Shown: positions 29,688 to 64,000 of the stretch, in pieces
Layout: each line of letters begins with the position of its first letter
Position numbering within the stretch: position 1 is the first letter of the stretch
NCBI GenBank assembly: GCA_013373015.1
Contig: JABXIQ010000006.1
Coordinates: 1-64,000, forward strand
Length of the DNA: 64,000 nucleotides
Direction: 5' to 3'
Origin: Kangiellaceae bacterium
Lineage (GTDB): Bacteria; Pseudomonadota; Gammaproteobacteria; Enterobacterales; Kangiellaceae
Translations under genes and position numbers: made by a program
The notes under the pieces: generated by a model
Told to the model about the DNA's origin: nothing
Seen by the model: the letters and a program-made list of their open reading frames with translations, nothing else
Database searches by the model: none

Positions 29688-29694
29688 CCGGCAA

Positions 29695-29722
29695 TACACG
29701 TTAGTGACAATTTACCCGACAT
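29695..29722 (+). repeat. Left-end terminal repeat of the element
   Basis: It begins TACACGTTAGTG and ends CCCGACAT, 28 bases. Its reverse complement matches the 63,748-63,775 copy at 18 of 28 positions, with conserved edges ATGTC and ACTAAYGTGTA. It sits within 8 bases of the yjbQ fragment, as expected for a recombinase binding site at the junction. Confidence 0.7.
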
Positions 29723-29983
29723 TTATTAGCCCCTTATGTTAATAATTTTTAGACAAAACTGTTTTGTCAGGTGGTATTGTCTAAAAATACCTCTTTCAAA
29801 GCAATTTAAATTGTCGAGTGTCCTGATTTAATTTCTCGCTTAGCGAGATTATTTTAGCCATAAAAATGGCTAGAAATGAAGAGCTGTGCTTTTAGTAATT
29901 CAAGCGTCTGCTGTGTTCGAATAACAGACCTTAACTGAGCCTAAAGAGGCACACGTCCCTACTGCTTAGCCTTGTTAGATTTC
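29723..29983. other. Hairpin-rich noncoding left end of the element
   Basis: No gene is visible. Successive inverted repeats are ATTTTTAGACAA (29745-29756) with TTGTCTAAAAAT (29777-29788), TCTCGC/GCGAGA (29834-29848), TAGCCAT/ATGGCTA (29855-29872), and AGCGTCTG...CAGACC (29903-29932). A further motif at 29960-29980 (TACTGCTTAGCC then TTGTTAGAT) recurs at 54415. The density of perfect stems suggests a structured RNA or remnants of recombination sites. Confidence 0.55.
29903..29932. repeat. Degenerate hairpin repeat, copy 1
   Basis: AGCGTCTGCT is followed by a loop and ACAGACCTT. Similar copies lie at 54325-54354 (inverted) and 55241-55270. All three are noncoding and inside the element. Confidence 0.45.
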
Positions 29984-30613
29984 TTACCTAGTCTCATTTG
30001 CAAGCCTTAACCCCAAAGCAACAAATACAGCACCCATTGCTTTATGTAATACTATTGATATACGACTGCTCTGCCTTAGGCGGGCCGTGAGTACTTGAGA
30101 CAACAAAACTATTGCAATATTGATAGATAGTGCAATAACGTTGACCGTAATCCCTAGAATTATTAACTGATTCAGAGCATTACCTGCCTCAGGCTGAATA
30201 AATTGCGGCAACAGGGAAATAAAGAAAATCGCTACTTTTGGGTTCAATGCGTCACTAACAAAACCTTGCCAAAAAATTGTTTTAAGCTTGGCGCTTTGCG
30301 TGGCGTCATTTGCCTCAACTGGTATGGCTTGCTTAGCGAGAAGCGCCTGACAACCAAGGTAAAGCAAATAAACTGCCCCACACCATTTAAGAATAGTAAA
30401 TGCTATTGAGGATGTGGCGATTATGGCGGAGATGCCGAGCATTGCAGCAAGCAAATGAAAATACCCTCCTAGATTTATACCTATAGCCGCTACTATACCA
30501 GCCTTCCTTCCCTGGGCGATACTGCGTCCTAAGAGGTATATCATGTCTGGGCCCGGGACAATACATAAGACAACACTCGCACATACAAATAGCCAATAAC
30601 TCTGAAAATCCAT
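29984..30613 (-). CDS. LysE-family amino acid exporter
   Basis: The 209-residue protein has six hydrophobic segments and the RhtB/LysE family start VPGPDMIYLLGRSIAQGRKAGIVAAIGINLGG (residues about 20-51), then GAVYLLYLGCQAL and QGFVSDALNPKVAIFFISLLPQF. Such proteins export amino acids such as homoserine or threonine; the substrate is not evident. GGAG precedes the ATG. It is the first gene inside the left end, and a motif resembling an integron attC edge begins 4 nt after its stop codon. Confidence 0.9.
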   Translation of the reverse strand: MDFQSYWLFVCASVVLCIVPGPDMIYLLGRSIAQGRKAGIVAAIGINLGGYFHLLAAMLGISAIIATSSIAFTILKWCGAVYLLYLGCQALLAKQAIPVEANDATQSAKLKTIFWQGFVSDALNPKVAIFFISLLPQFIQPEAGNALNQLIILGITVNVIALSINIAIVLLSQVLTARLRQSSRISIVLHKAMGAVFVALGLRLANETR

Positions 30614-30746
30614 CTGCTTACTCCGATTAAATCTAACATTTAAGTATATGAATTCGATTGGAACAGCTTAATTTATAGGAATAAATTTAGACATTGTTAT
30701 TAGATTTCATCAAATCTTTTAAAACGCGTTCCTCACTTTCTATTAT

Positions 30747-31400
30747 CTACTTACTTATTAACCTGCCTTTTCTAAAAATAATGGCAAGTATCCAATATAG
30801 CATTACGAATAAAAGCAACATTTCAGGTAGCCAGAGCCCTCCTATTTCTTTAATAAGATCTGGAAATATATCTTGTCCAAGAAATGCTGCCATTGCTAAT
30901 TGAAAAGCAAACAGCATTCGCCATAAATGCCGTAATAATCGCTCTTTACCTTCTAGTCCTTTTTTGACTAACACTCGAATGTCTAGTAAAGCACATAAGG
31001 TAGCGAAGCATCCGAATAAAAAATACACCATAAACGGTAAACCATAAAGTGCTTGCTCTGGCAAGCTTTTAGCGTATATACCTGTACTTATGAGCTTATA
31101 TGTTGCCGTGACAATCGTAACAAAGGCTATAACTTCTAGTAATCCAATAGTATTTGGAGGGCGGTACATGGTAAGCCATGAAGTAAATACAAGATAAAAA
31201 GAAAGAACTCCTATATAGATGAAGTCATCTGCTAAATAAGCCATAAGGATTGCACTTAATGAGGTTAATATCATAGATACAACGAATATGCGCCCTAACA
31301 ACTTATGTCTTTTAGTTCCTTTTTGAGTAATTAAAACAACAAATCCTGCTAATAACACCAAACATCCAAAAACAACATGCAAAACTAAAACAAAATTCAT
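30747..31400 (-). CDS. DUF2306-like membrane protein (217 aa)
   Basis: The protein has seven or eight hydrophobic segments and the conserved histidine and arginine pattern seen in four other genes of this element: a His in the first helix (LHVVFG), KRHKLLGRIF after it, and RHLWRM near the end. These histidines suggest a redox or haem-binding membrane protein, which is an inference from pattern only. It lies 15 nt after the stop of the next DUF2306 gene, in a run of at least six minus-strand genes. Confidence 0.7.
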   Translation of the reverse strand: MNFVLVLHVVFGCLVLLAGFVVLITQKGTKRHKLLGRIFVVSMILTSLSAILMAYLADDFIYIGVLSFYLVFTSWLTMYRPPNTIGLLEVIAFVTIVTATYKLISTGIYAKSLPEQALYGLPFMVYFLFGCFATLCALLDIRVLVKKGLEGKERLLRHLWRMLFAFQLAMAAFLGQDIFPDLIKEIGGLWLPEMLLLFVMLYWILAIIFRKGRLISK

Positions 31401-31415
31401 AATTACTCCGCTTGC

Positions 31416-32216
31416 TTATATAGAATTAATTCTTGGTAACCATGCCAACTTCATAACTGCATATGTCCCAATCAAAATAAACAGGCTGCTTAAAATAAAA
31501 GTGGTATTCCATACTTTCCGACTAAGCATTCCATTGTTTGTATATCTGTAAATTTCAACAAACAGCACTGGGATTAAGTAGCACCCAAAGTTCCAAATCA
31601 TTAAAAAAGGTCCAGTAAAAATATCCATATCAATTCCAGGGGGGATCTCAAAAATGAAAAGCCAAAAGTACAAGCCTACTCTAAAAAGCCAGACAGCACT
31701 TGCCACCCAAAATAATCTGATTACCCAGAGTTTATGGTGTACAAACTGTTTTGCTTTCGCGTGCTTATAAGCCAGAACCGCTGCAACTATGACAAATACA
31801 GCATTCAAACTAGCGCTCATTTGTCCCATCAGCCCCGCAGCATCGGCCCCTCTAATCCAGATCATGTAAAGTCCAGACAAGCTGCCTAACAACACAAGGC
31901 AAATATATAACCGGCCTGACCAACGATGGAGCCCTGAAAGCTTGCTCCTAATCTGCTCAGAAAACTGCAGTAAGCCCAGCACAGTTATAAGAGATGCCGT
32001 GACAATATGAGAGCCGACAGCCAAATTTCCTAAAGTGTCGCCAGCAATTAATCCACCAGCAACTTTAGACCATGTTAAATACTCAGACTGAGTACCCTTA
32101 ATCAAAAAGTACTTAACGATGTAAAACACAAACAGGAGCTGGCTAATAGCAACACTACCTAGAAAAATAGACTTAGAACCCAACCCTGTCTTGTTTTCTA
32201 TTGTCACGGCACTCAA
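31416..32216 (-). CDS. DUF2306 membrane protein (266 aa)
   Basis: Eight hydrophobic segments surround GDTLGNLAVGSHIVTASL, the GLHRWSGRLYI motif and VHHKLWVIRLFW, all typical of DUF2306. The apparent start is TTG at 32216, overlapping the TGA stop of the gene before it as TTGA, which implies translational coupling. The family has no assigned biochemical function. Adjacent copies differ enough in sequence to be old duplicates rather than recent ones. Confidence 0.75.
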   Translation of the reverse strand: MSAVTIENKTGLGSKSIFLGSVAISQLLFVFYIVKYFLIKGTQSEYLTWSKVAGGLIAGDTLGNLAVGSHIVTASLITVLGLLQFSEQIRSKLSGLHRWSGRLYICLVLLGSLSGLYMIWIRGADAAGLMGQMSASLNAVFVIVAAVLAYKHAKAKQFVHHKLWVIRLFWVASAVWLFRVGLYFWLFIFEIPPGIDMDIFTGPFLMIWNFGCYLIPVLFVEIYRYTNNGMLSRKVWNTTFILSSLFILIGTYAVMKLAWLPRINSI

Positions 32217-33001
32217 ACTCTATTCAGCCACATACCTGTACTCGCCGCATAAATACCTATTGCAGTTATTACAGAGGCTATTATTAAGACTCCGGTTGTA
32301 AATATTTGTATATATGGCTTTTGTGCCTTTTGAGAATAGAAATAGAGCTCTAATATAGCTAGCGGCAATAAGTATTGTGCAAAGCCAAGGAAGTACAAAA
32401 ATGGCCCTGTAAATGTCTCCCAATCAAAACCAACTGCTTTCCCATCATGTATGAACAGCCAAAGCTGAAGGCCCAATCTTGCAAACCATACCCCTGAAGC
32501 AGCTAAAAATAACCTCAAAGCCCACCGTCTATGTATCTGTATCTTCCTTTTAATAGCAAAATACAAAGCGGATCCAGCAAATATTAAAATTAATATCCCA
32601 TTAATTAGGATACTAATATGCTGAACAGTTCCACCAACTGCACCACGAAAGATCACTAAATAAATTCCGCTCAAAGCAATAAGGCAGGCTAACAGAATAT
32701 AGAAACGCCCATTCCATCTATGAAAACTTGGAAACTTCTTTCTTACCTGTGGAATAAGTTGAAGTGGCCCCATAAATAAGAATGCAGCCGATAAAAACAG
32801 ATGCGCCGCAATAGAGATGTTACCTTTTAAATCTCCTTCAATATAACTTTTTGGTAAGTGCGTATTTTGTAAATATTGGATCCCTTCACTTAAGGAAGGT
32901 ATAAGAAAATACATCAAAATGTAGTAACCAAAAATCCATTGCCCAACTAAAACTATTAAGAACCATAATGTTGCTGCATAGGAAGTGTATTTATTGTACA
33001 T
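32213..33001 (-). CDS. DUF2306 membrane protein (262 aa)
   Basis: It has the same layout as its neighbour: LKGNISIAAHLFLSAAFLFMGPLQLI, SFHRWNGRFYILL, and QIHRRWALRLFL. The ATG at 33001 is chosen because it lies 13 nt after the stop of the glyoxalase-like gene and places the first helix at residue 12. An earlier ATG overlapping that gene would add 16 residues. The ribosome binding site is weak, so coupling to upstream translation is likely. Confidence 0.75.
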   Translation of the reverse strand: MYNKYTSYAATLWFLIVLVGQWIFGYYILMYFLIPSLSEGIQYLQNTHLPKSYIEGDLKGNISIAAHLFLSAAFLFMGPLQLIPQVRKKFPSFHRWNGRFYILLACLIALSGIYLVIFRGAVGGTVQHISILINGILILIFAGSALYFAIKRKIQIHRRWALRLFLAASGVWFARLGLQLWLFIHDGKAVGFDWETFTGPFLYFLGFAQYLLPLAILELYFYSQKAQKPYIQIFTTGVLIIASVITAIGIYAASTGMWLNRV

Positions 33002-33014
33002 ATTACTATTTATT

Positions 33015-33425
33015 TCAGTTGTCGTTACAGAGGAATAAATAAGCATCAATACTTCTATTTTTTAACTCTGACTTTTCCGAACAAGCTAGCTCATGCTGGT
33101 TTCCTGACGGATCCGATAAATAAATCGAATACACAGAGTCGTGCTCTATCACTTTGTGCTTGGCTCTGTTTTGATCAAAATAAGCGATCCAATTTTCAAA
33201 CTCAGCTGGGCTGACATTAAAAGCAATCCCTGATGACGGAGGGCTATTTTCTTCAAAAAGGGCTAAAGCGATACTCTTATCATCATTATAAAGAAATACG
33301 GGTTGCTCTACACTTTTACTAATTGGCTTGAAGCCTAGTACTTTTCCGTACCAATCAATAGAATCTTCAAGCGCCTCGACATAGAGATGTAAATGATCAA
33401 TCTTTCTTAAACTTGGTCTATTCAT
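33015..33425 (-). CDS. VOC family (glyoxalase/bleomycin-resistance fold) protein
   Basis: The 136-residue single-domain protein shows IDHLHLYVEALEDSIDWYGKVLGFKP at the start and SIYLSDPSGNQHELA at the end, the two beta-alpha-beta-beta-beta modules of VOC proteins. The substrate is unknown, and metal ligands are plausible at the first His and the final Glu. Its ATG overlaps the stop of the upstream membrane gene (AATGAATAG), and AAAGG lies upstream. Confidence 0.8.
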   Translation of the reverse strand: MNRPSLRKIDHLHLYVEALEDSIDWYGKVLGFKPISKSVEQPVFLYNDDKSIALALFEENSPPSSGIAFNVSPAEFENWIAYFDQNRAKHKVIEHDSVYSIYLSDPSGNQHELACSEKSELKNRSIDAYLFLCNDN

Positions 33426-33828
33426 TATTATCACCTTTTGTATTTTGAGCTTCTGACATCAAGCAAAGCACCAAGCCAATAAAAACTATCCCAAAACCCA
33501 AAACCCCGATATTTACACCAAAAACCATCTTCTCTGGAGCGTTAACGAAGGCCATATCACCTCCGTATAGCTCTTTTAAAGCATAAGCCATCAAAAAGGA
33601 GCCAGTAACAATCATGCTTAAAATGGTCGGAATAATCAGGCGCTTTCTTATCCAAACTAGATATAAGCAATAAAAACCAATTACCGAATTAGTTATGAGT
33701 TGCCATACCTCATGAATTTTTGCATGCGGTGTCCATGCAGGATTGAATACATGGGTATCATTAACTTCTAAAATTGGTACGACTACGGCATACAAAACTA
33801 CGGCAAGAGTAAGGAATACGCGAATCAT
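33418..33828 (-). CDS. Four-helix membrane protein (136 aa)
   Basis: Four hydrophobic segments are visible. The loop NDTHVFNPAWTPHAKIHEVWQL between the first two is strongly patterned with His, Asp and Trp, and I associate it loosely with DUF6640-like proteins. No enzyme motif is present. It overlaps the VOC gene by 8 bases and is part of the same operon. A CAGG ribosome binding site precedes the ATG. Confidence 0.6.
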   Translation of the reverse strand: MIRVFLTLAVVLYAVVVPILEVNDTHVFNPAWTPHAKIHEVWQLITNSVIGFYCLYLVWIRKRLIIPTILSMIVTGSFLMAYALKELYGGDMAFVNAPEKMVFGVNIGVLGFGIVFIGLVLCLMSEAQNTKGDNNE

Positions 33829-33839
33829 AAATACCTGAG

Positions 33840-34382
33840 TTACTTACCTGCTATAAGTTTGAAAGAAGCGTGCGAAATAATATCAAAAATCAATTGTTGT
33901 ACCGCAGGAACAAATGCTTGCGCAACCTGCTGACAAGCTTTATCTGCCACCCAATTAGTAGAAAAGTCATAAGTCGACTCGACGTCAAAAGTGATATCCT
34001 CGCCGTTTGAAATCGTCACATTAAACTGCCATTGACCATCCCCAATACTCGATCTAAAATCTAGTTTTTTGATCAAACCATTTAAGTTTACAGTTGCATT
34101 TTCTGAATATTTACCCGCAATTCGTAATTCTGTATTAAGCGCATTTCTTAAATAATCATCAAAACTTTCCTTGTTGGGAGTCTCAACAGGCCCTGCTCCA
34201 CGGCAGTAGATCGAATTATTCGCTTCAAGCGATTTCATACCGTGAACTTTATATGTGGCACCACTCAAGTTTTTTAAATTGTTTATATTTTTCTCTGAAA
34301 CGCTATAAGTATTAACGGTATATGTAGAACAACCCGTGAACACAACCAAGCAAATCACTATTATAAAAATCTGTTTTAACAT
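33840..34382 (-). CDS. Putative lipoprotein (180 aa)
   Basis: The ATG at 34382 has GGAG upstream and gives a signal with the lipobox FTGCS at about residues 15-19. The mature protein is soluble and beta-rich, with two cysteines (YCRGAG and DKACQQ), and is not a recognised family. It is the first gene of the minus-strand run toward the DUF2306 genes. The 22-bp GTACC operator at 34404-34425 lies 21 nt upstream of its start, so it is a likely target of the GntR regulator encoded 16 kb away. Confidence 0.7.
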   Translation of the reverse strand: MLKQIFIIVICLVVFTGCSTYTVNTYSVSEKNINNLKNLSGATYKVHGMKSLEANNSIYCRGAGPVETPNKESFDDYLRNALNTELRIAGKYSENATVNLNGLIKKLDFRSSIGDGQWQFNVTISNGEDITFDVESTYDFSTNWVADKACQQVAQAFVPAVQQLIFDIISHASFKLIAGK

Positions 34383-34403
34383 TGTTAACTCCATAAATTT
34401 ATA

Positions 34404-34425
34404 GTACCATTTGAACCAATGGTAC
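34404..34425. promoter_or_regulatory. GTACC operator, copy 1
   Basis: The arms GTACCA and TGGTAC flank the core TTTGAACCAA. Two other copies at 44747 and 51113 share the arms and most of the core, 18 of 22 positions across all three. It lies in the divergent region between a lipoprotein gene and an ArsR gene. The copy at 51113 sits beside a YtrA-type GntR gene, the likely regulator. Confidence 0.65.
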
Positions 34426-34466
34426 ATTTAGTTTGAATAATGTCAATATTTAAAAGCAATTTACTA

Positions 34467-34494
34467 TTGACATATTCCCATATAGGAATATATT
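34467..34494 (+). promoter_or_regulatory. Promoter with embedded ArsR-type operator
   Basis: TTGACA at 34467 and TATATT at 34489 are spaced by 16 nt. Between them lies the near-perfect palindrome ATATTCCCATATAGGAATAT at 34472-34491, which would let the ArsR product block its own promoter. The predicted start of transcription is at or within a base or two of the ATG at 34501, so the message may be leaderless. Confidence 0.6.
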
Positions 34495-34500
34495 GAGGCA

Positions 34501-34836
34501 ATGGCTAGAGAAAAAACGACACTTAACCCTTTCAATGCTGTTGCAGATTCCAATCGGCGGCAGTTAATTGAGCTATTAGCTCGCGGTGAATACACAGTTA
34601 CAGAAGTGGTTCAAGAGTTAGATTGGTCACAGCCTCAAGTATCAAAGCATTTATCGGTCTTAAAGCAGGTTAATCTTGTTCTAGAACGAAAAGAAGGGCG
34701 CAAAAGAATTTACTGTTTAAATTCAGTGGCGCTAAAACCTATCCACAATTGGATCATGCAATTTGAGCAATATTGGATTGGCAATCTCAATAGTCTCGGC
34801 CATTACCTAAATGAAATTCAAAAAAATGAGGATTAA
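34501..34836 (+). CDS. ArsR-family transcriptional regulator
   Basis: The 111-residue winged-helix protein has FNAVADSNRRQLIELLARGEYTVTEVVQELDWSQPQVSKHLSVLKQVNLV, the ArsR DNA-binding region (about residues 11-60). The metal-binding ELCVCDL box of true ArsR is absent, so the signal is probably not a metal; it is closer to the SdpR-like branch found with SRPBCC genes. It overlaps the following SRPBCC gene as TAATG and is probably autorepressed through the palindrome at 34472. Confidence 0.88.
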   Translation: MAREKTTLNPFNAVADSNRRQLIELLARGEYTVTEVVQELDWSQPQVSKHLSVLKQVNLVLERKEGRKRIYCLNSVALKPIHNWIMQFEQYWIGNLNSLGHYLNEIQKNED

Positions 34837-35345
34837 TGATGGAAACAATGCAAAAAGTAGAACCTACTATCATCGAAAAAGAATATAACGCCCCTATTAA
34901 GCTTGTTTTTGATGCCTGGACAAAAGTTGAGCATTTAGCAAATTGGCAATTCCCAATGAAAGGGTTTAAGTGCGCATTTAAAGAAACCGATATATCACCT
35001 GGCGGTCGCACTCTTCATAAAATGACAGCACCGAATGGTTTTGAAATGTGGCTTCTCACAAAATATGAAGAAATCATACCAAACCATACCATAGTATTCC
35101 GTCAATATAATTCTGACGAGAATGGCGAGATATTGCCTAATCCTCAAATGCCGAATTGGCCTAAAGAGCTACAAACTACAATTAAATTAGAAGAAAGTGA
35201 CAACAAAACCAAGTTGCAATTGATATGGCAACCAATTACCCCAAGTGAAGAAGAAGCTACTGCTTTCGATATGAGCCGCTCAGAACATGGCAATGGCTGG
35301 GCTGGCGGATTAGCAAACCTAGAACAATATCTAGAGCAACAATAG
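34836..35345 (+). CDS. SRPBCC (AHSA1-like) protein
   Basis: The 169-residue protein has the AHSA1 pattern: IIEKEYNAPIKLVFDAWTKVEHLANWQFP at residues about 11-39, then SPGGRTLHKMTAPNG, and the C-terminal GWAGGLANLEQYLEQ. It is translationally coupled to the ArsR gene. ArsR-SRPBCC pairs are common. The SRPBCC partner presumably binds or modifies a hydrophobic molecule, but none is known for this gene. A likely terminator follows. Confidence 0.85.
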   Translation: MMETMQKVEPTIIEKEYNAPIKLVFDAWTKVEHLANWQFPMKGFKCAFKETDISPGGRTLHKMTAPNGFEMWLLTKYEEIIPNHTIVFRQYNSDENGEILPNPQMPNWPKELQTTIKLEESDNKTKLQLIWQPITPSEEEATAFDMSRSEHGNGWAGGLANLEQYLEQQ

Positions 35346-35357
35346 TAGCCCCTTAGG

Positions 35358-35392
35358 AGCCCTCAACGCTGTTCAGAGGGCTTCGCTTTTTT
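35358..35392 (+). terminator. Probable terminator of the first ArsR-SRPBCC operon
   Basis: AGCCCTC pairs with GAGGGCT, followed a few bases later by six T. The loop is 11 nt. Confidence 0.6.
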
Positions 35393-35407
35393 AAAAAGGT
35401 ACTCAAT

Positions 35408-36259
35408 ATGCTCAGACTAACCATAATATTTGTATTATCTCTGCTACCAGTAGCAATATTAAATGCTAAAGAGCCAGAACCTTATAAACTGCCTAGAACA
35501 GAAGTCATACCAATCCAAGAGTCTAAAACAAAAAAACAATATGAACTTTATATTAAACTCCCAGAGGAATACTCAAAAAACAAGAATAAAAAGTATCCAG
35601 TAATATATTTTACTGATGCAGTATGGCATATCGAAATACTATCTGCTGCAACTGCATTTCTAATGGAAGACGTAATTCTAGTAGGTATTTCTTGGCAAAA
35701 AGATATTGAAGAGCAGCTTTTATTAGAGGAAGGCCCCCAGGCAAGTCGCTATAGAGATTACTCGATTAGCAAGTCCAGCAAACCGGAAGTGCAGTCAAAG
35801 TACCAATTAGGACAGGCCAATAAACACTTAAATTTTGTTCGCAAGGACGTGTTTGAGTACGTCGAAAGACACTATCGCACCGCTCCTAACAATCGAACTT
35901 ATTTTGGTTACTCTCTTGGAGGGCTTTTCGGGGCCTACACTCTAGTGGTCCAACCGGACACATTTAATAACTACATTTTAGGGAGCCCTTCCCTTTGGAA
36001 AGGTAATCCTAAACTTTCTTTAATTGCTTCAAACCATCTGCCTCACTATAAGGATAAAGATGTAAACATTTTCATTTCTTATGGTGAGTTAGAACAAAAG
36101 TTAAGTGTTCATATTGAAACATTTATCACTCTACTAAAAGAGCATGATCTACATGTTCATCGTTTAGTAGTTGAATCTTCTGACCACGGAACAGCATTCC
36201 CGACCACTGGCATCGAAAGCATTAGGTGGCTTTCAGATTTAGAGCCTAATAGTAAATAA
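35408..36259 (+). CDS. Exported alpha/beta-hydrolase, esterase D / Fes-like
   Basis: A signal peptide covers about residues 1-20 (ending ILNAKE). The mature enzyme has the opening of Fes/IroE-type esterases, YELYIKLPEEYSK and YPVIYFTDAVWH, the nucleophile elbow GYSLGG near residue 168, and a C-terminal histidine in SSDHGTAFP. Such periplasmic esterases cleave siderophores or other esters; no siderophore gene is nearby. A truncated relative lies at 38,841. An AAAGG ribosome binding site precedes the ATG. Confidence 0.85.
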   Translation: MLRLTIIFVLSLLPVAILNAKEPEPYKLPRTEVIPIQESKTKKQYELYIKLPEEYSKNKNKKYPVIYFTDAVWHIEILSAATAFLMEDVILVGISWQKDIEEQLLLEEGPQASRYRDYSISKSSKPEVQSKYQLGQANKHLNFVRKDVFEYVERHYRTAPNNRTYFGYSLGGLFGAYTLVVQPDTFNNYILGSPSLWKGNPKLSLIASNHLPHYKDKDVNIFISYGELEQKLSVHIETFITLLKEHDLHVHRLVVESSDHGTAFPTTGIESIRWLSDLEPNSK

Positions 36260-36284
36260 CTCAGATATTATTCTATAAAAAGAT

Positions 36285-36707
36285 ATGACCATTATTGAAC
36301 ACATCAACATAACAGTACCTAACATAGATGAAGCAATAAACTTCATAAAGATAGTAGCTCCTGACTTTAAAGTAAGGAAAGATATTAGACCATCAGACAA
36401 CTACCGCTGGGCTCATATCGGAAATGACCAGTGTTATTTTGCTCTTCAAGAGCCACACCTTGACGCTGAACCTCATTATCCACTCAAATCCTATAAAAAC
36501 TATGGTGCGAATCATATATCGCTAGCTGTTGAAGATCTCGACAAAATAGAAGAACAATTAATTAAAGCTGGATACAAAAGAAGCATAGATGCTCCTAACG
36601 AGAAATTTAGAAAAAGATTATATTTTTTTGATTCCACTGGTTTTGAATGGGAGTTAGTAGAGTATTTTTCCAACGACCCAGATGAAATGTTCTTGTATGA
36701 GGGCTGA
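36285..36707 (+). CDS. VOC family protein
   Basis: The 140-residue protein starts IEHINITVPNIDEAINFIKIVAPDFKVR and has GANHISLAVEDLDKIEEQLIKAGYK followed by RLYFFDSTGFEWELVEY, the paired VOC modules with plausible metal ligands at His5 and the final Glu. Substrate unknown. It lies 25 nt after the esterase gene and before a beta-propeller lipoprotein gene, all in one direction. Confidence 0.82.
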   Translation: MTIIEHINITVPNIDEAINFIKIVAPDFKVRKDIRPSDNYRWAHIGNDQCYFALQEPHLDAEPHYPLKSYKNYGANHISLAVEDLDKIEEQLIKAGYKRSIDAPNEKFRKRLYFFDSTGFEWELVEYFSNDPDEMFLYEG

Positions 36708-36744
36708 ATAACCATATAAGCACCAGTAAAACAAGGAGAGTACA

Positions 36745-38805: not shown

Positions 38806-38840
38806 AATACACCATATAAATACTTAAGAGTCATCCATTG

Positions 38841-42917: not shown

Positions 42918-42918
42918 T

Positions 42919-54354: not shown

Positions 54355-54414
54355 CGGAGATTAAGTATTTACGGCCGTATTAGGCGTCTCGTGGAGACCA
54401 GAAGGGCCGGAACA

Positions 54415-54954: not shown

Positions 54955-55312
54955 ATCTATCCATTTTCACAAAACATAAGAAAACTAGGATTCGGTTGTA
55001 AGACTCTGGTTTACAATATAAAAAAACGAAGTTTCGAAAGTGTCACAAATACCATAGAAAAAGCGGTCTAAAAGTGCATGCTCCCTCGGAATTCCGACTT
55101 TGTTGATATTAAATGACAAATTTCTGACAAGTGTATCCGATATTTCTTGTTTTTGTTTTATTCGTTAGCTGTAAGGTTAATATAGGATATATGTTTGAGT
55201 CAAAGTTATAGCCAAGTTAAAGTTTATTGAACAAACTCCAAGCGTCGGCTTTGTAAAGCTTACAGACTATTAGATTCTTTCATCTGCTACCCACAATAAT
55301 TTTTCTTTAATT
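54955..55312. other. Noncoding stretch with degenerate repeat copy 3
   Basis: This AT-rich intergenic region holds the hairpin-like repeat AGCGTCGGCT ... ACAGACTAT at 55241-55270. It must also contain the promoter of the minus-strand gene 54430-54954. I see no convincing reading frame or terminator. Confidence 0.45.
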
Positions 55313-56262: not shown

Positions 56263-56265
56263 ACT

Positions 56266-56964
56266 TTAGTTCTTATATACTCTTGATAGTTCTGCTGGAA
56301 AGCGAGAAGCATCTTCCATACTCCCTTCTATATGGAAAGCTTCAAGATCGTCTATGTGCTGCCGAAATAACTCAACTGCATGCTTTTCGTCGTCAAGAAG
56401 AATGTGGCGATTAGTATCCAAAATAGTAAGTAGTCTTCTATTGTTAGGTAATATACGAGAAAGAACTTTGCGCTTCCACTGCTCTGCTGCCCCACTTTCA
56501 GGATTCTGGGCTGCTTCTATATGAGGACCATACAACTGAAAAATTGTGTAATTTTGTTCAAGAATAGGCTCTACTACTTCACGAGCAGAAGCACGATCAT
56601 CAAATTTCACAGCCCCAAAGAGCTGCTGAAGCTTATTAGCATGCTCTACCTTCCACTTTCGCATCATTGAATCTGGAAAATCAGAAGGGGCTTTGTCTAC
56701 CTTCGTATGACAGTTTGAACACAGAACAATTAAATTATCAAAAGTTCCTCGCTCTTCTTTACTTAACTCTGGCTTAGCTCGAGGACCTTTATCACTTGCC
56801 GCAAAAACATGTGCCAATTCAGCTATATGAAAAGACCCTGAAGGAGTATCTATAAACAGTTCTTCTACACAACTAGGGTTCTGACAATACCCAGCAGAAG
56901 AAGAGAAAAGTCGACGTTGTGTATGCGCACTTGGCGACGCGGTCCCTTTAGAGCAAGACATCAT
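56266..56964 (-). CDS. HNH endonuclease
   Basis: The 232-residue protein has a zinc-stabilised HNH fold: CQNPSC near residue 27, then IAELAHVFAASDKG, FDNLIVLCSNCHTKVD, with the catalytic histidine in AELAH and the second zinc pair in CSNC. It is a DNA-cutting domain. The C-terminal 120 residues are helical and may sense or bind partners. It is the first gene of a compact operon with an unknown gene and a nucleotidyltransferase, an arrangement that suggests a defence system. Confidence 0.85.
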   Translation of the reverse strand: MMSCSKGTASPSAHTQRRLFSSSAGYCQNPSCVEELFIDTPSGSFHIAELAHVFAASDKGPRAKPELSKEERGTFDNLIVLCSNCHTKVDKAPSDFPDSMMRKWKVEHANKLQQLFGAVKFDDRASAREVVEPILEQNYTIFQLYGPHIEAAQNPESGAAEQWKRKVLSRILPNNRRLLTILDTNRHILLDDEKHAVELFRQHIDDLEAFHIEGSMEDASRFPAELSRVYKN

Positions 56965-57224
56965 CACACCATTTATCCATTATTTTCCTTTTTACTGCAA
57001 GACTCCAATTATTAAGGATAATATTAGCACAGTAGAAACCGATGTACATTCAGCAAATAGTATTAACTTATCTATATAATCAAAATATCCAAATTCGATT
57101 ACTTAGAAGTAATCGAATATCAAGCCCTTTGCACTACATTAAAATAGTCTTGCTAGATAGAAAATAGTTGATATCCTTTATTGAATCCTTCGTAAGAATT
57201 TTTAACTGGCTGTTATAACTAACT

Positions 57225-58358
57225 ATGGACTTAATAATAGACTCTCAAGATAAAGATATTATAGACATTTGTACTCGCTATTGGTCCCACAATAACGGGC
57301 AATTTAACGAAAGCGTTAAAGACATTCTTAAAAGCTATAACAATCTTAAAGGGTTAAACTCTATTGTAGAAGAGAATTGCACGGCATACTCTTTAATAAC
57401 TTCCTGCCTTACTTGTGGTGACAAGTATATCTATAAAAATAGAAATGACTTTAAAAAAATATTTAATAACGAAGATGACTTCATTTGGGAGTGCGATGAC
57501 TGCATATATTTTCAGACCAAACAGTTAGAGGAAACTCAAAGAAATGAACTTGTTTCGAGCTACAAAACAGCTATACAACACCCTGTGATGATAGAGGAAT
57601 TAACTGTAAAAGAAGCTGTTGTTTTACGCTCTTTAATATTGCACCTAGCTACAGAAGATATGGAGTACTTAGAATATCTAGACCAAGTCGATGGCGAGAT
57701 CTCTCTGAGCCCATTTAGGGAATACAGTTTAGAACTACTTCGAGAAATGTATCGTTCCTCCGTAATTAGCATTCACCCATATACTTCTTTAAATCGAATT
57801 AACTTTACTGCCGATTTAAATTTCTCCTTTTCACTTTCAGAAGTTCCATGGCTAATAAACATTCCTGAGGGCATGAAGATGGAAGAGTTTTCCATTGCAC
57901 TGTCAAATAAAATTTCTTCATTAGAGTATATTGAGGAAAGGCCTGACGAAGTAATTGAGTTATGTCATGAAATAAGCCTGAAAGAGTGCATATCATATTT
58001 AGAGTATTTAGGCGACGAGTATGGATTTGACTTTAAAGTTGGTCCAAAAACTTTAGAAGCATTAAACAAAGTACTTACGCATTTTTCAGTTGCTCAGGCA
58101 TATAATTTCATATGGAGAGCCTGCAAAGATGCGGCTGCGTATTATCAACGCTCGCAAGTATCTAAACGCCAAGCTGCCAACTCCATTGTTGGCAATATTG
58201 ACAGGGCAATTGATCAAGCATTAGCTAATAACTGGGATGTTAAAGCATATAAGAGAAGATATGACGCACCACAATCCGTTATTAGCCAAGTATTATTCAA
58301 TCATTTATTACATACAGATGATGGAGGATTTAATTCCAAACTAAAAAGCTTGCTATAA
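57225..58358 (+). CDS. Unassigned zinc-ribbon protein (377 aa)
   Basis: Near residues 63-105 it carries SCLTCGDKY followed after about 30 residues by WECDDCIYF, a CxxC...CxxC zinc ribbon. The middle region is acidic, and the C-terminal 110 residues are helical, with FIWRACKDAAAYYQRSQVSKRQAANSIVGNIDRAI and a closing YDAPQSVISQVLFNHLL. I do not recognise the family. It is convergent with the recombinase operon and divergent from the HNH operon, a frequent place for accessory or defence genes. Confidence 0.65.
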   Translation: MDLIIDSQDKDIIDICTRYWSHNNGQFNESVKDILKSYNNLKGLNSIVEENCTAYSLITSCLTCGDKYIYKNRNDFKKIFNNEDDFIWECDDCIYFQTKQLEETQRNELVSSYKTAIQHPVMIEELTVKEAVVLRSLILHLATEDMEYLEYLDQVDGEISLSPFREYSLELLREMYRSSVISIHPYTSLNRINFTADLNFSFSLSEVPWLINIPEGMKMEEFSIALSNKISSLEYIEERPDEVIELCHEISLKECISYLEYLGDEYGFDFKVGPKTLEALNKVLTHFSVAQAYNFIWRACKDAAAYYQRSQVSKRQAANSIVGNIDRAIDQALANNWDVKAYKRRYDAPQSVISQVLFNHLLHTDDGGFNSKLKSLL

Positions 58359-58374
58359 AAATAACCGCTTTTTA

Positions 58375-58770
58375 TTACTCTAACTTTTTGAAGCGCGCAA
58401 TCTCCTGCTCCTTTAAAAACCTATTTTCATACTCTAGTTGTTCATTAACTGTCGTTAAAGCCACAACTATGTTAGTTAGCTTTTCTATTTTTTTATTCAA
58501 GCGCTTGATTCTTTTTACATCAGACTCTCTTCTCTTTTTCGTTGTTTTTCTAGAAGAAGGAGGAGCCCGGTGTATTTCTGAATATGCTTTAACCTCACTA
58601 TGCAGCTGCGGATATCGATCGCCTCTGAAGCTAGCAGGGTTGATTCCAGCTTCTTTTGCAACATTTGTCAATGTGATAGGAGCCCCCTGATCTAGCAAAG
58701 ACGGCTCACCATTCTTTAAACGCTCAAAAGCCTCTCGAAGGGGGGATTCAACACTTTTCTGACGTGGCAT
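58375..58770 (-). CDS. Small HTH/coiled-coil recombination auxiliary protein
   Basis: The 131-residue protein has an N-terminal HTH-like part (SPLREAFERLKNGEPSLLDQGAPITLTNVAKEAGINPASFRG) and a C-terminal coiled coil (VKRIKRLNKKIEKLTNIVVALTTVNEQLEYENRFLKEQE). This is the layout of Tn554 TnpC, and of the small fourth gene (srap) in SE elements. GmtX of Gamma-Mobile-Trio elements may be comparable. It overlaps the end of the recombinase gene upstream by 23 bases. Confidence 0.75.
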   Translation of the reverse strand: MPRQKSVESPLREAFERLKNGEPSLLDQGAPITLTNVAKEAGINPASFRGDRYPQLHSEVKAYSEIHRAPPSSRKTTKKRRESDVKRIKRLNKKIEKLTNIVVALTTVNEQLEYENRFLKEQEIARFKKLE

Positions 58771-60739
58771 GAAAAAACACCTCTATTGCTTGGTTTTCAA
58801 GTTTAAGTTTTGAATGACGCGGGGTATTCTCTTGTAGTGATTTCAACTCTTCTTCATTGCTTTCTTTCAATTGTCTTAACCTCTTACTATTTTTCTTTAC
58901 AAATACAGCATCTTTGCAAGGACCAAGCCCATCGACGCCAGCGCAGTGTACCGCTGACTCGACACCTCCATATTGGCAACTTTCGACCATACAAAATCCA
59001 AGAAGTGTTTGGCGCGCCCCAACCAGCCCTCTTTTAACAAGCTCTTTCAATTTCTTATGCTCTCCATCACTAATCAACCTAACGACTTTAGAGTCCATAA
59101 GATTTTCCCCCGCAGCATGAATGTATTCACTCAAGTTACTTTTAGTTATATTTACTAAATTACGTACTGTTGTTTGATAAGCTTCTATCATTACAGTTCG
59201 AGAAACTTCCCCATTCACTCTAATTCGTGTGTAATTTCTCCCATAATAATAACTTTGTTGCAATGTTTTATGCTTCATCATCCATTGAATAACGCTGTCA
59301 GGAACATCTGATACAAACAAGTTAACTGACAAACTTCTTCTTAACTGATGTGCGGAGAACGACCAAATACCGCCTACTTTAAACCAGGATTTTTCCGTGA
59401 GGCGGGGTGTAAGCTGATAAGCAATTTTGTAGTCTTCTTCAGAAATCGTAAAATCTTTTTTATTAAATGCAAGCGGGTATCTAATAATTACACTGCCTAG
59501 GCTCCATTGATTTATTTTTTTAGCTTTATGCGCACTAAAAGGTTCAAGCCCTCCAATCATTAAATATGGATTACCCGTATATTTAAGGTCAATACTTTCT
59601 AACGTTGACCTCAATCTAAGCTGAGTGATGTAATTCAATATATTAACTGCACGTTCTACCGACAAAGGTACCACCCAATTAGCATCACTATCTGGATCTG
59701 TTTTAGTTGTCTCTCCAACTATCAGTCCAACTTTTCCTAGGTTAGGGTCATCGTCTGTTTGAAAGCAATCAGAACGTAGAGATAGGCCTTCACCTACTCT
59801 TTGAATACTATGTGCTAAGATGTATGTAAAGGCAGCATCTCGAACCAAGTTAAGATACTCAGACATCACATTCAGCTTATGGGTAAAATGCTTTGGTTCA
59901 TTCACCCATCTATTGAGAAGCGCCTCCAAGCCACGGTCTTTATAAAATGCGTCAATTCCACCTTCGTAGGAGCAGCGAGCTCCTCTCTTTTTATCTCCAT
60001 ACGAAACACTTTTCGTATTAATAAATGGACTCACAGAGGAATATCCTTCTTCTGTATTATGTTTGTATGCTTCAAAGACCCACATCCATGCATCTACAAA
60101 GCAGTTTTTGTTAAGTTCAAAGTCAGCCATTACTCTCTCCGTTGACTTTATTAATGACATCCAGATTCGAGGAGGGATATATGCATGTTGAATAGGAATA
60201 TGTGGAACTCTTAGTTTTTTTAATTGCTCAATGAAATGTAAATCTGCAATTTTCCATCCAAGAACTTTGCATTCCCTCAGCAGTGAAGACAAAGTCCAAA
60301 TCAACTTCAAATGCTGTGCAGGACTTGTAATCTTAATTAGCTCCGCAGCTAACAATGGAAACCTGTAAAGTTCATCAATCGAAATCCCGTGTTTATCAGA
60401 AACCTTACATATCTTACAAAGCACCTTAAAAATGTGCCCTAGTGATACAATTTTACCTGGGAAAAGAGGCATATGATAAAGGTGAAGAAACATCAACTGT
60501 TTGAGCAAATGATTATTTTTATAAGAGAGCTGCTGTCTTTTAAAGTTAAAACCACAATGACCATATGCTTTAAAGTTCCAATAACTATCGCCATATTTTG
60601 AAAGTGGATTTCCTTGTTCGTCCACTGAAACAACGAAATGACTTGGAGGAGGAAAAGATAAAGGTTTGTAGTTATCTAGCTTTGATGCTTCTTGCCCCTT
60701 ATCTAGATTAGCGCAGAATCGCAATTCACTAACGTTCAT
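58748..60739 (-). CDS. Tyrosine recombinase, IntB-like, with zinc-binding tail
   Basis: The 663-residue protein keeps all catalytic residues of the tyrosine recombinase fold: Arg in HSIQRVGEGL, HxxR in AHQLRRSL, His in WMMKHKT, and the nucleophile among SYYYGRN. A C-terminal cysteine cluster (FCMVESCQYGG, HCAGVDGLGPCKD) probably binds zinc. The GGGAGGGG ribosome binding site is strong. Its ATG overlaps the previous stop by 4 bases. It corresponds in position to intB of SE elements or to a second recombinase of GMT elements. Confidence 0.88.
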   Translation of the reverse strand: MNVSELRFCANLDKGQEASKLDNYKPLSFPPPSHFVVSVDEQGNPLSKYGDSYWNFKAYGHCGFNFKRQQLSYKNNHLLKQLMFLHLYHMPLFPGKIVSLGHIFKVLCKICKVSDKHGISIDELYRFPLLAAELIKITSPAQHLKLIWTLSSLLRECKVLGWKIADLHFIEQLKKLRVPHIPIQHAYIPPRIWMSLIKSTERVMADFELNKNCFVDAWMWVFEAYKHNTEEGYSSVSPFINTKSVSYGDKKRGARCSYEGGIDAFYKDRGLEALLNRWVNEPKHFTHKLNVMSEYLNLVRDAAFTYILAHSIQRVGEGLSLRSDCFQTDDDPNLGKVGLIVGETTKTDPDSDANWVVPLSVERAVNILNYITQLRLRSTLESIDLKYTGNPYLMIGGLEPFSAHKAKKINQWSLGSVIIRYPLAFNKKDFTISEEDYKIAYQLTPRLTEKSWFKVGGIWSFSAHQLRRSLSVNLFVSDVPDSVIQWMMKHKTLQQSYYYGRNYTRIRVNGEVSRTVMIEAYQTTVRNLVNITKSNLSEYIHAAGENLMDSKVVRLISDGEHKKLKELVKRGLVGARQTLLGFCMVESCQYGGVESAVHCAGVDGLGPCKDAVFVKKNSKRLRQLKESNEEELKSLQENTPRHSKLKLENQAIEVFFHATSEKC

Positions 60740-62418
60740 TTCCCCTCCCAGAATTTAATAATATCAGCCCATATAGGATGATAATTTCCTTCATCTACTT
60801 TCAATAAAGCCTCCTTTACCCACAACATCGATTGCTTAGTTAGACCCTTAAAAGTTTCAATTTTTTTATTCAAACGTTCTACAGTTATATCGGCAGGCAA
60901 CTCTCGACTCACTGGCTGAGCTGCTTCAATAAGTTTTAGTTGGCGAAAAGATACAAGTGACCAAACATAGTCCTCCGAATTAACATCTCTGTGATTTTTA
61001 CAAAATAAACATCCTGACTGACTAATACAGTCTGGTTTATTTATTCCGCTAGGTAAATTATCCACAGGTTCCGGGGCTCCTCTACATCCTCCTCCAATAA
61101 GGTTAATTGGGTTGTCTCTCCAAAAAGTTGTCAACGCAGTCATAGCGCGCTGTTGAGATGGTTTGTGATAGTGTTGCTCAAATGTTTCTTTAGCATGCTG
61201 AGCTATTTCGCTGCTTACGTTTGCATCATCGATCAAACGATTTAAAAAGTTAACTCTTGTATTCCTAGTTTTACTGGGAGGTATCCAAGGAACCTTATCC
61301 CGCTTAAGGTGCTTCTTAAGTAAATTATAGTTTACAAGTCCTTTTGCTTTAATTAATGAGCGGGTTAAAGGGAAAAGATAAGGCTGCTCTGGTCGAAACC
61401 GATCTATAAATACAATAAACTCTTTAAACCGCTCTTTATAATCTTTATATATTACAAATGATTTAGGACCGCCGGCTCTTGCTTTATTTTGCGTGACTAA
61501 CCAATCACTATGCCCTTGTAATTTATATGAAAAACCCCTTCTAGAAATATGCAAAACTTGAGTAACATTCATTCCAGTTTGATAGACAAAAATTACAAGC
61601 TCAACAAGAATTCTCAATGTTATTAAGCCTCTTCGATAGGGGTCTAGATCTTTATATTCCATTACCTCTACTGGTTCACAAGCATTCTTAGCTTTCGTTT
61701 GGCATGTTTTTCTCTCTGACTTCAAGCCATTCTCAATACTAACAGGTAATTTAACGCTTACATTAGTGCCATCTGGTTTAGTCAACTTGGCTTTTATAGG
61801 TAATCGACCAATTACTGCTTTTGTCGTAAGGCTGTTTGCAATATCTACACAATAAAAGCCAAGTTTTTGCGAGTCGCCAATATGCTGCTTTTCTGAGGCG
61901 CGACTAATTGCTACTTTCGCAGGATGTTTAAATGCTTTAACAACTCTTGATGAATACCTAAAATCTTTATATTCAGGGAGTTTTACTGCATTCCCTATGA
62001 CTTTAGCTACTTGAAGAACTAGTCCATATGCACTTTCTTGTTTAATTTCTTTCTTTATCCATGCCCTATAATATTGATATTCATCAAAATGGATGAAATT
62101 ATTTTTCAAGTTATCTTCATCTATATCCAACAACAAGTCCCTTTCATCAATAAATTTTATAAACAGCTGAAAACTAGATAAATAGGTATAAAGTGAAGAA
62201 TCTGGCATACCTCTTGTTTTTTCAAGATTGAAAGAATCAGTCACAGCCTCAATGAATGGAATGCGCTCTTTTATAAGACTTTTCCATTTAGTATCGCAGT
62301 CATTTTCCCGAAACCACCATCTTGCATCGCTTGAGGCGCCGCCTTTAATAAGAAATCTTCTTAAGTCTCCAGCTTTTCGATTATAACCTCTTATCTTTAA
62401 ATGCTGTATCTCATCCAT
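60736..62418 (-). CDS. Tyrosine-recombinase-fold protein with degenerate active site (Tfp-like)
   Basis: The 560-residue protein has the fold, but the first catalytic arginine is replaced: VYQTGMNVTQVLHISR has Asn where active enzymes have Arg. HxxR is replaced by TRNTR, while QHAKETFEQHYHKP keeps a histidine and tyrosine. A cysteine/histidine cluster (CRGAPEP...DCISQSGCLFCKNH) probably binds zinc. Similar catalytically altered middle recombinases (tfp) occur in SE elements. It probably has a structural or strand-selection role. Confidence 0.8.
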   Translation of the reverse strand: MDEIQHLKIRGYNRKAGDLRRFLIKGGASSDARWWFRENDCDTKWKSLIKERIPFIEAVTDSFNLEKTRGMPDSSLYTYLSSFQLFIKFIDERDLLLDIDEDNLKNNFIHFDEYQYYRAWIKKEIKQESAYGLVLQVAKVIGNAVKLPEYKDFRYSSRVVKAFKHPAKVAISRASEKQHIGDSQKLGFYCVDIANSLTTKAVIGRLPIKAKLTKPDGTNVSVKLPVSIENGLKSERKTCQTKAKNACEPVEVMEYKDLDPYRRGLITLRILVELVIFVYQTGMNVTQVLHISRRGFSYKLQGHSDWLVTQNKARAGGPKSFVIYKDYKERFKEFIVFIDRFRPEQPYLFPLTRSLIKAKGLVNYNLLKKHLKRDKVPWIPPSKTRNTRVNFLNRLIDDANVSSEIAQHAKETFEQHYHKPSQQRAMTALTTFWRDNPINLIGGGCRGAPEPVDNLPSGINKPDCISQSGCLFCKNHRDVNSEDYVWSLVSFRQLKLIEAAQPVSRELPADITVERLNKKIETFKGLTKQSMLWVKEALLKVDEGNYHPIWADIIKFWEGK

Positions 62419-62422
62419 AATT

Positions 62423-63637
62423 TCAACTAAAGTTTGGTCCTAGAAAGTACCTTATAAATGACTTATTAGCTTTCCTTGCTGTTTTGGAGTTCTGTAAAAA
62501 TTTAATATACCTCCATGTTGTAGCTTCATTCTTGTGCATCAGCCAATCACGAACATTATTTATCGCATCATTATCACTGTGCTTCATGAATTCACGAGCC
62601 AGCTCTGTACCACAAGTAGCTCTGGACTGATGAAACTTAAGGTCGTGAAACTGAGTATATCCGTCTCTAATTAATGTTCTTCTTAATTCACTCATAGCTG
62701 TATTAATGCTCCCTTCACTATACGGCTGCCCATCTTTTGTAAGAAATAATAACGATTTATTATCTTTATTTGCTTTAGCCTGTCTTTTAAGACGGACTAT
62801 ATTCGTTTCAGCATAATCAAGAATAAAATAATAGACTGGCTTCAAAAACCTGATGAAACCTCTCACATCATATTTAGTGTTAATTCCTGTCCCAGGGCCG
62901 GCAGCAACAAGCATAATATTTGGATCAATTTTATCTGATATTGCTCTTTTTAGATTTTCAATCCTCAGCGTTCTGATAGAACCAATACGTGAGCCTGTAA
63001 AAAACCCAATTACGAACATTGCGTGTAAAACCGTATTACTCTCGCTTTTGTGTTCATTCAAATATGTTAAAAGAGTATCGCGGTCTTCGCCTGAAAGAGG
63101 TAAAAGCCCATCTTCAAGTTTCGAAATATTTGCTTTTCTATGTGAAATTCTCAGATCGGTTGTTGAAACTGTTAGTGTTCGCTGGAAGCCAGTTTTATTG
63201 AAGTATGTTACTGATACTTCCTGCTCTTCCCACATTTTTATTTGTTTATCTATATAACCACGCTTTTGAGCCCATTTATAAAAGTTAACGACTGCATTCA
63301 TCCTTCTAGAAGGAACTGCACTTGTTCCATTAGACGATCTAATGAGATGTCCTCTAAAGCGCTCTAAACAACGCTCGGCTTGCCTGATAGGAAAATGTAG
63401 CCATGTGATATTATTATCTTCCAACCAATCAGCATATGCTTTTAAGTCATATGCATTACTTCGTAATGTCGAGCTTTTACTTCTTTTTTCAGATAGATAG
63501 ATTAGAACTTCTATCCAAGGCTTACAATCAGACCAGAAAATCAAATAATTTGTTTTGGATTTTCTTGTATCATCCTTAACCCATTTACCACTAACGAATT
63601 GATACGGTTGCGCTTTATAACTTTGTATATATGCCAT
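62423..63637 (-). CDS. Tyrosine recombinase, IntA-like
   Basis: The 404-residue protein has an N-terminal SAM-like binding domain (about residues 40-130) and a catalytic domain with Arg217 in TGSRIGS, Lys in NTKYDVRG, HxxR at 336-339 (HQSR), His368 in LMHK and the nucleophile Tyr377 in TTWRYIKF. All residues for activity are present. It is the first gene of the four-gene operon and lies 110-165 nt from the right-end repeats, the site on which it presumably acts. This is the expected position of intA (SE) or GmtY. Confidence 0.9.
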   Translation of the reverse strand: MAYIQSYKAQPYQFVSGKWVKDDTRKSKTNYLIFWSDCKPWIEVLIYLSEKRSKSSTLRSNAYDLKAYADWLEDNNITWLHFPIRQAERCLERFRGHLIRSSNGTSAVPSRRMNAVVNFYKWAQKRGYIDKQIKMWEEQEVSVTYFNKTGFQRTLTVSTTDLRISHRKANISKLEDGLLPLSGEDRDTLLTYLNEHKSESNTVLHAMFVIGFFTGSRIGSIRTLRIENLKRAISDKIDPNIMLVAAGPGTGINTKYDVRGFIRFLKPVYYFILDYAETNIVRLKRQAKANKDNKSLLFLTKDGQPYSEGSINTAMSELRRTLIRDGYTQFHDLKFHQSRATCGTELAREFMKHSDNDAINNVRDWLMHKNEATTWRYIKFLQNSKTARKANKSFIRYFLGPNFS

Positions 63638-63747
63638 CGGTAAATCAGCATCCTTATATTAATTTTTGAAATCATCAACTTTAAGAAATACTAAAAATAG
63701 AAAAGAAAACTGCGTTCGTAAAGAAAAAAATGTAGGGATATCTAAGA

Positions 63748-63775
63748 ATGTCAGATTTGAAATTACTAATGTGTA
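63748..63775 (-). repeat. Right-end repeat, inner copy
   Basis: The 28-base unit starts ATGTCAGAT and ends ACTAATGTGTA. It shares 18 of 28 positions with the reverse complement of the left-end repeat and recurs as an outer copy at 63779. Confidence 0.65.
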
Positions 63776-63778
63776 GTT

Positions 63779-63803
63779 ATGTCAGGTCATACACTAATGT
63801 GTA
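63779..63803 (-). repeat. Right-end repeat, outer copy at the junction
   Basis: ATGTCAGGT ... ACTAATGTGTA, 25 bases, reaches to within 2-3 bases of the yjbQ coding sequence. With the inner copy it forms a direct repeat with 28-bp spacing of the conserved ACTAATGTGTA edge. Relative to the left end it is inverted. Confidence 0.65.
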
Positions 63804-64000
63804 AAGTAAACCCCTTGCCAAGTCCCTAAAGCCAAACGCCCATCAACAATAGGGATACTCAAACTGGTTGCGGTCAAAGCGGCCTTAATATGCGCAGGCA
63901 TATCATCTGCACCCTCATAAATATGCGTATAAAGTGGATCATTTTCTGGGACTAAACGATTAAGCCAACGCTCTAGATCATGCTTGGCGCTAGGATCGGC
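63794..64000 (-). pseudogene. yjbQ: yjbQ, 3'-truncated by the element (partial at window edge)
   Basis: Reading from the window edge it encodes ADPSAKHDLERWLNRLVPEN, YEGADDMPAHIKAAL, and LGTWQGVYF, the conserved body of YjbQ. The last two codons (Thr-His) and the TAG come from the element. The normal EHR...R C-terminus lies at 29,631. YjbQ is a small UPF0047 protein reported to have weak thiamin-phosphate synthase activity. The lost 18 residues are conserved, so function is probably lost or altered. Confidence 0.88.

What the first reader, a model, noticed from the sequence alone, without database searches (positions are those of the whole stretch)
29688..63805. A 34-kb integrative element splits yjbQ
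The codons for the YjbQ C-terminus (WEHRHGNHNRQVVVHISS, stop at 29631) are separated from the rest of yjbQ (ending LGTWQGVYF at about 63,806) by about 34.1 kb. Removing the interval restores GTT TAC TTT TGG GAG CAT in frame. This sets both borders of the element without any comparative data. The target is a protein-coding gene near its 3' end, not a tRNA.
Basis: partly seen in the sequence, partly recalled or inferred. Interest (0 to 1): 0.92.

Follow-up and report, generated by a model that had tools for sequence, protein, structure and literature searches.

The report
SE-type mobile island inside yjbQ
A 34-kb mobile island in a Kangiella-type bacterium sits inside the last codons of the gene yjbQ; its four recombination genes and its ends place it in a recently described family of mobile elements (SEs), so it is a well-resolved new member of a known kind rather than a new system.

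Summary
The split of yjbQ is real. The genome is in the same genus as Kangiella sp. HZ709. Motif C (63792-63803) and its imperfect inverted copy C' (29695-29706) bound a 34,109-bp element. [quoted passage not shown] All four proteins align with a locus whose Tfp is that of published SE-PaeBT2436 (28-39% identity). The SE 6-bp rule (TTACTT stays at attL, footprint TTGCCG at attR) restores GVYLWEHRH; Leu stands there in 28 of 28 intact relatives read. Kangiella sp. HZ709 has the same core at the same codon with different cargo, although its YjbQ is only 69% identical, so common inheritance does not fit. A Methylophaga MAG (IntA 70%) uses the same codon; a distant lineage (IntA 38-41%) uses nearly the same site. 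The IntA tree rejects one clade for these four (p-AU 0.012), so yjbQ may be a reused target. Circle formation, strand bias and activity are inferred. Text searches found no paper on an element in yjbQ (lists partly capped, supplements not readable).

The parts
29695..63803 (-). The element, motif C' to motif C, 34,109 bp
   Evidence: Inverted repeat at both ends; identity with the G012 element stops at or next to these points
63792..63803 (-). Motif C, TACACATTAGTG (its ACACATTAG gives the new stop of yjbQ)
63764..63775 (-). C1, copy of motif C 28 bp inside the element
   Evidence: same arrangement in G012 and in the Methylophaga locus; a C1 near C is described for Tn6283 (PMC5991714, passage)
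63804..63809 (-). attL spacer TTACTT, read as original yjbQ bases (TTACCT in G012)
29695..29706 (-). Motif C', CACTAACGTGTA (11 of 12 complementary to C)
29689..29694 (-). 6-bp attR footprint TTGCCG, identical in G012
62423..63637 (-). intA, 404 aa tyrosine recombinase
   Evidence: Phage_integrase 34.3 bits, cut-off 27.1; R217, H336, R339, H368, Y377 invariant in A1
60736..62418 (-). tfp, 560 aa, no Pfam match; Asn at the place of the first catalytic Arg
58748..60739 (-). intB, 663 aa large tyrosine recombinase
   Evidence: Phage_integrase 29.4 bits; alignment
58375..58770 (-). srap, 131 aa
   Evidence: 39% over 90 aa to the small fourth protein of the L064 locus
29984..58358 (.). Cargo: e.g. 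LysE exporter, DUF2306, glyoxalase, AHSA1, esterases, serine beta-lactamase-fold proteins, GST, GNAT, regulators
   Evidence: 36 of 38 ORFs of at least 100 aa scanned with Pfam
63797..64000 (-). yjbQ 5' part, cut by the window end (121-codon truncated ORF on the contig), ends LGTWQGVYFTH*
29632..29688 (-). Displaced yjbQ 3' codons (WEHRHGNHNRQVVVHISS, with stop)
   Evidence: end positions approximate

Best explanation
[quoted passage not shown] Mechanism, inferred from published SEs: IntA and IntB, helped by Tfp and Srap, join the two ends on one strand; a double-stranded circle is copied out whose joint carries the 6 bases left of motif C, and the resident copy stays. On insertion the 6 target bases stay beside C and the 6 bases carried by the circle are left beside C' as a footprint. 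Shown here: the four genes in SE order, homology to a published SE, C/C' ends, and 6-bp spacers that restore the conserved Leu in two hosts. Inferred: circle formation, strand bias, present activity, loss of YjbQ function.
For: Four packed genes at the C end: recombinase, protein without the first catalytic Arg, large recombinase, small protein. All four align with L064, whose second protein is WP_034039553.1, the accession given for Tfp of SE-PaeBT2436: 36, 28, 28 and 39% over 387, 567, 665 and 90 aa. Ends and spacers in window and G012 both restore YLWEH under the 6-bp rule. Same core, same codon, different cargo in G012. Of 36 cargo ORFs scanned, no Pfam match named a relaxase or conjugation protein. 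Element 37.0% G+C, left flank 40.3%; lower G+C is usual for SEs (PMC10214605).
Against: The inverted repeat is 12 bp, just under the 13-19 bp given for the first SEs. TTGCCG is identical in both Kangiella copies, so a fixed element end cannot be told from a footprint. In a 14-row IntA tree and elsewhere, homologs are distant (28-39% to the named SE). In the Aeromonas plasmid locus L045 the annotated small fourth gene is not similar to Srap (E 2.5). In G217 the bases beside C do not follow the 6-bp rule simply. No experiment.
Confidence: 0.92

Rival explanations
1. It is an SE but no longer moves: a resident island kept for its cargo (overlaps with the best explanation; it differs only on present activity).
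For: Cargo of ordinary metabolic and detoxification type; at least one published putative SE gave no circle (Shewanella putrefaciens ATCC 51753, PMC10214605).
Against: The four core genes are open; IntA and Tfp are 96% and 93% identical to those of G012 while YjbQ is 69% identical, so the core moved fairly recently; both ends are intact.
Confidence: 0.25
2. The 6-bp TTGCCG is a fixed part of the right end and not a footprint: the element ends asymmetrically and integrates like a conventional island.
For: TTGCCG is the same in the two Kangiella copies in different hosts.
Against: The rest of the anatomy is that of SEs, for which footprints are shown by experiment (PMC10214605, PMC9345347). The same footprint is also expected if both circles came from one donor site.
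Confidence: 0.2
3. A GInt (ginABCD island) rather than an SE.
For: Same general layout: three recombinase-type genes and a small gene at one end; the size, 34.1 kb, is near the GInt median of 34.9 kb and above the SE median of 15.7 kb (PMC10214605).
Against: In GInts the first two genes are catalytic and the third is not; here the second is the non-catalytic one (gene description in PMC10214605, PMC5385486). All four proteins align with an SE locus. No Gin sequence was compared directly.
Confidence: 0.03
4. The window and G012 elements descend from one insertion in a common ancestor, or were passed on by recombination in the flanks.
For: Same codon and same TTGCCG in both.
Against: Core mostly 89-98% identical per 250-bp bin, but YjbQ 69% in protein, with identity dropping at the element ends.
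Confidence: 0.05

Closest known systems
SEs: SE-6283 (Tn6283), SE-6945, SE-PaeBT2436 (PMC10214605, PMC5991714, PMC9345347)
   Same: Order intA-tfp-intB-srap, inverted C/C' ends, inner C1 copy (as in Tn6283), 6-bp spacer logic, insertion in a protein gene, no mobilization genes found
   Different: Core proteins only 28-39% identical to SE-PaeBT2436; target yjbQ instead of bcp, insJ or yjjN; 34.1 kb against a median of 15.7 kb (largest published 58.5 kb); inverted repeat 12 bp
Element of Kangiella sp. HZ709 (G012), found here
   Same: Same core, same codon, same footprint
   Different: 25,396 bp; other cargo (RND and cation efflux); attL spacer TTACCT
GInts (Bardaji et al. 2017, PMC5385486)
   Same: Three recombinase-type genes plus a small gene at one end, variable cargo, short AT-rich other end
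   Different: Position of the non-catalytic gene; published targets differ (ABC transporter gene in pseudomonads)
Tn554 (as described in PMC10214605)
   Same: 6-bp footprint, one ordinary and one large recombinase, small third protein
   Different: No Tfp counterpart; hosts are Staphylococcus and Enterococcus

Membership tests
SE | Four core genes intA, tfp, intB, srap in that order at one end | tested here: met
SE | Sequence homology of Tfp and Srap to published SEs | tested here: met
   Tfp 28% over 567 aa (E 1e-64), Srap 39% over 90 aa (E 7e-18) to the L064 locus with WP_034039553.1
SE | RHRY in IntA and IntB, absent from Tfp | tested here: met
   Read by eye on alignments: present in IntA and IntB; in Tfp the first Arg is Asn in 5 of 5, though a late His and Tyr look kept
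SE | Imperfect inverted repeats of 13-19 bp (C, C') at the ends | tested here: inconclusive
   Present at both borders, but 12 bp, 11 matching
SE | 6-bp spacers: attL from the target, attR footprint from the donor | tested here: inconclusive
   attL spacer and 6-bp removal restore Leu in window and G012; donor origin of TTGCCG not shown; G217 does not fit simply
SE | No mobilization genes | tested here: met
   36 of 38 cargo ORFs of at least 100 aa, no such Pfam match
SE | Strand-biased circle without empty site | not testable with these tools
   needs PCR and sequencing
GInt | First two genes catalytic, third not | tested here: not met
   second gene is the one lacking the first Arg
GInt | Homology to GinC and GinD | not tested
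   no Gin sequence was fetched
RIT | Three recombinases of 315-410 aa, all with catalytic Tyr (description in PMC10214605) | tested here: not met
   404, 560 and 663 aa
Tn554 | No Tfp counterpart | tested here: not met
   tfp present
ICE/IME | Conjugation or mobilization functions | tested here: not met
   none among 36 of 38 cargo ORFs; Xis not searched for specifically

The most novel reading that the evidence does not exclude
The last codons of yjbQ (GxYLWEHR) are a recurrent SE target, taken up at least twice independently: by a Kangiella/Methylophaga IntA clade and by a distant IntA lineage (G217). A conserved 8.6-kb left end and about 0.2-kb right end carry exchangeable cargo, and both Kangiella insertions came from circles made at one common donor site outside yjbQ, which left the same TTGCCG footprint.
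Probability: 0.4. Interest if true: 0.5.

Novelty: new member of a known kind. Interest (0 to 1): 0.4.

Why it matters
It is a precisely bounded SE with a natural replicate: same core, same codon, two hosts, different cargo. That lets the published 6-bp rule be examined in wild genomes and adds a target gene. If yjbQ is a recurrent target, truncated yjbQ would be a simple marker for finding SEs, which are easily missed because no tRNA is involved and the element does not rebuild the gene it cuts.

Tried and rejected
tRNA-type island: rejected, the one tRNA found is at 33-109. GInt: considered first from the layout, set aside on the position of the non-catalytic gene without a direct comparison with Gin proteins. 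Viral contigs: no IntA relative. Phage collection: one partial Srap match, not followed. IntA scans of relatives, class, order, order of G217 and phylum (4 of 61, 3 of 369, 14 of 394, 1 of 27 and 4 of 398 genomes with a match, at different E-value limits and with overlapping genomes) gave few close relatives. Of those whose upstream side was read, G217 lies in yjbQ; G330 and G592 lie in genes that look by eye like umuC and a DNA methylase; the site of G1032 was not identified. The other, weaker hits were only tested for a yjbQ match beside them (none). The end pattern C-C1 occurs in 2 of 40 genomes of the family, the window genome and G012. Promoter scan at the C end: 1 found, 1.3 expected. 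pAQU1 was opened for a named SE, but only 50 kb of 204 kb was read and no SE was identified there. Inheritance of both Kangiella copies from one insertion: set aside. AlphaFold and fold searches were not used.
Full report
Observation. On the minus strand, after two genes that I recognise by eye as dnaB and alr, yjbQ reads normally to LGTWQGVY and then runs into FTH*. About 34 kb lower the codons of a YjbQ C-terminus, WEHRHGNHNRQVVVHISS, stand alone, followed by a gene whose start, MKPIVFFRKFH, is that of the gene after intact yjbQ in L006; its counterpart in G012 matches PepSY_TM. Only one yjbQ match was found in the window's genome, which is 95% complete.

Borders. TACACATTAGTG (63792-63803, minus) and CACTAACGTGTA (29695-29706, minus) form an inverted repeat, 11 of 12. 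The motif by itself is not rare: with up to 2 mismatches it occurs 6 times in the window, 5.95 expected; its three matches with at most 1 mismatch are the two borders and a copy, C1, 28 bp inside one of them. Leu stands there in 28 of 28 intact loci read and Trp follows in 27 of 28. One search found yjbQ in 51 of 61 genomes; 30 loci were returned, two of them (G000, G012) with the element, so 28 of the 49 other positives were read.

What the element is. Next to C lie four tightly packed genes: 404 aa with a Phage_integrase match, 560 aa without one, 663 aa with a C-terminal Phage_integrase match, and 131 aa. Against L064, a plasmid locus whose second protein is WP_034039553.1, the accession given for Tfp of SE-PaeBT2436, identities are 36, 28, 28 and 39% over 387, 567, 665 and 90 residues. 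Against two other plasmid loci they are 40, 34 and 39% (L045, IntA, Tfp, IntB) and 42, 34, 39 and 38% (L046, all four); the small gene annotated at the fourth place in L045 does not match Srap. In the Tfp alignment the first catalytic Arg is Asn in 5 of 5, while a late His and Tyr look kept (by eye); Idola et al. describe Tfp as lacking RHRY. What I read of the papers: PMC10214605 abstract, first part of Background, Results, Discussion and passages; PMC5385486 abstract and first part of Results; PMC5991714 and PMC9345347 passages only.

A natural replicate. G012 matches Kangiella sp. HZ709 contig NZ_WKJC01000001.1 in length, position and sequence. It has a 25,396-bp element at the same codon. 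From about 55.2 kb to motif C, which takes in the four core genes and four neighbours, identity is 89-98% per 250-bp bin; the right end matches over 269 bp, 34 of them flank, at 90%. The cargo between differs: two RND efflux sets, one of copper type, and a cation efflux gene in G012 (10 ORFs scanned); esterases, DUF2306, AHSA1, glyoxalase, LysE and similar genes here (36 of 38 ORFs). YjbQ of the two hosts is 69% identical and identity falls at the element ends, so inheritance of one old insertion does not fit. The attL spacers differ (TTACTT, TTACCT) while the attR 6-mer is TTGCCG in both. By the SE rule both circles then came from a donor with TTGCCG left of C, which no yjbQ read here supplies; or TTGCCG is a fixed part of the end. 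These data cannot decide.

Reuse of the target. A Methylophaga MAG contig (IntA 70%) has its left end at the same codon; its right end was not in the contig stretch held. G217, another family of the class (IntA 38-41%), also runs from yjbQ GTWQGV into an SE left end, but its contig stops inside tfp, and compared with 9 intact relatives (8 with LWEHR, 1 with LYEHR) the bases beside its motif do not follow the 6-bp rule simply. On a 14-row IntA tree window, HZ709 and Methylophaga group together (100/100). G217 falls with two plasmid SEs (85/86 and 93/98, not starred); one clade for the four is rejected with p-AU 0.012, and 0% of 200 bootstrap trees have it, but the well-supported branches alone do not exclude a single origin. 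This suggests at least two origins; it does not prove them.

Effect on the host. YjbQ loses its last 19 residues, replaced by FTH. In the solved relatives the aligned C-terminal part is present (9 distinct chains, 3 alignments shown). Loss of function is inferred and was not modelled.

Literature. Searches combining yjbQ with genomic island, integrase, insertion site, integrative element or strand-biased showed no paper on an element in yjbQ. In some searches only 15 of 2,164 and 10 of 2,240 matching papers were listed, and none of those listed holds yjbQ. One search (yjbQ with strand-biased) found 0 papers. One search (yjbQ with genomic island) found 1, which lists yjbQ only in expression tables. 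Supplementary target lists were not readable.

Verdict. A new, precisely bounded member of the SE group, with a target not met in the papers searched. Shown: anatomy, homology, ends, a 6-bp pattern that restores the gene in two hosts, and the same codon in a third, related element. Inferred: copy-out movement, strand bias, activity.

Noticed in passing
window 55313-56967: Three adjacent genes (HNH protein with PADLOC matches to endonuclease effectors, 3e-30 at best; a 214-aa protein without a match; a 106-aa nucleotidyltransferase-type protein) lie in the part shared with G012: a possible defence or toxin-antitoxin module that travels with the core.
   Followed up: partly
window 29695-29930: The C' end is a stretch of about 235 bp with inverted repeats and no ORF of 100 aa, conserved in G012; as single-stranded DNA it folds better than 200 of 200 shuffles (z -3.55). 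Possible recombinase landing site or terminator.
   Followed up: partly
window 30747-33049 and 51177-52776: Five DUF2306 membrane-protein ORFs in two groups within one element.
   Followed up: no
L081 (G330) and L048 (G592): Related SEs appear to sit in a umuC-like gene (after EPYSID) and in a DNA methylase-like gene (after DPACG), read by eye: like yjbQ, conserved protein motifs.
   Followed up: partly
L047/L063 (G217): SE left end in yjbQ, but the bases beside the motif (GTGTTGTTTACA) match neither the native codons of relatives nor the 6-bp rule.
   Followed up: partly
phage record MT835978, 6124-6312: A 63-aa stretch 49% identical to the N-terminal half of Srap in an unannotated phage record from human faeces.
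   Followed up: no
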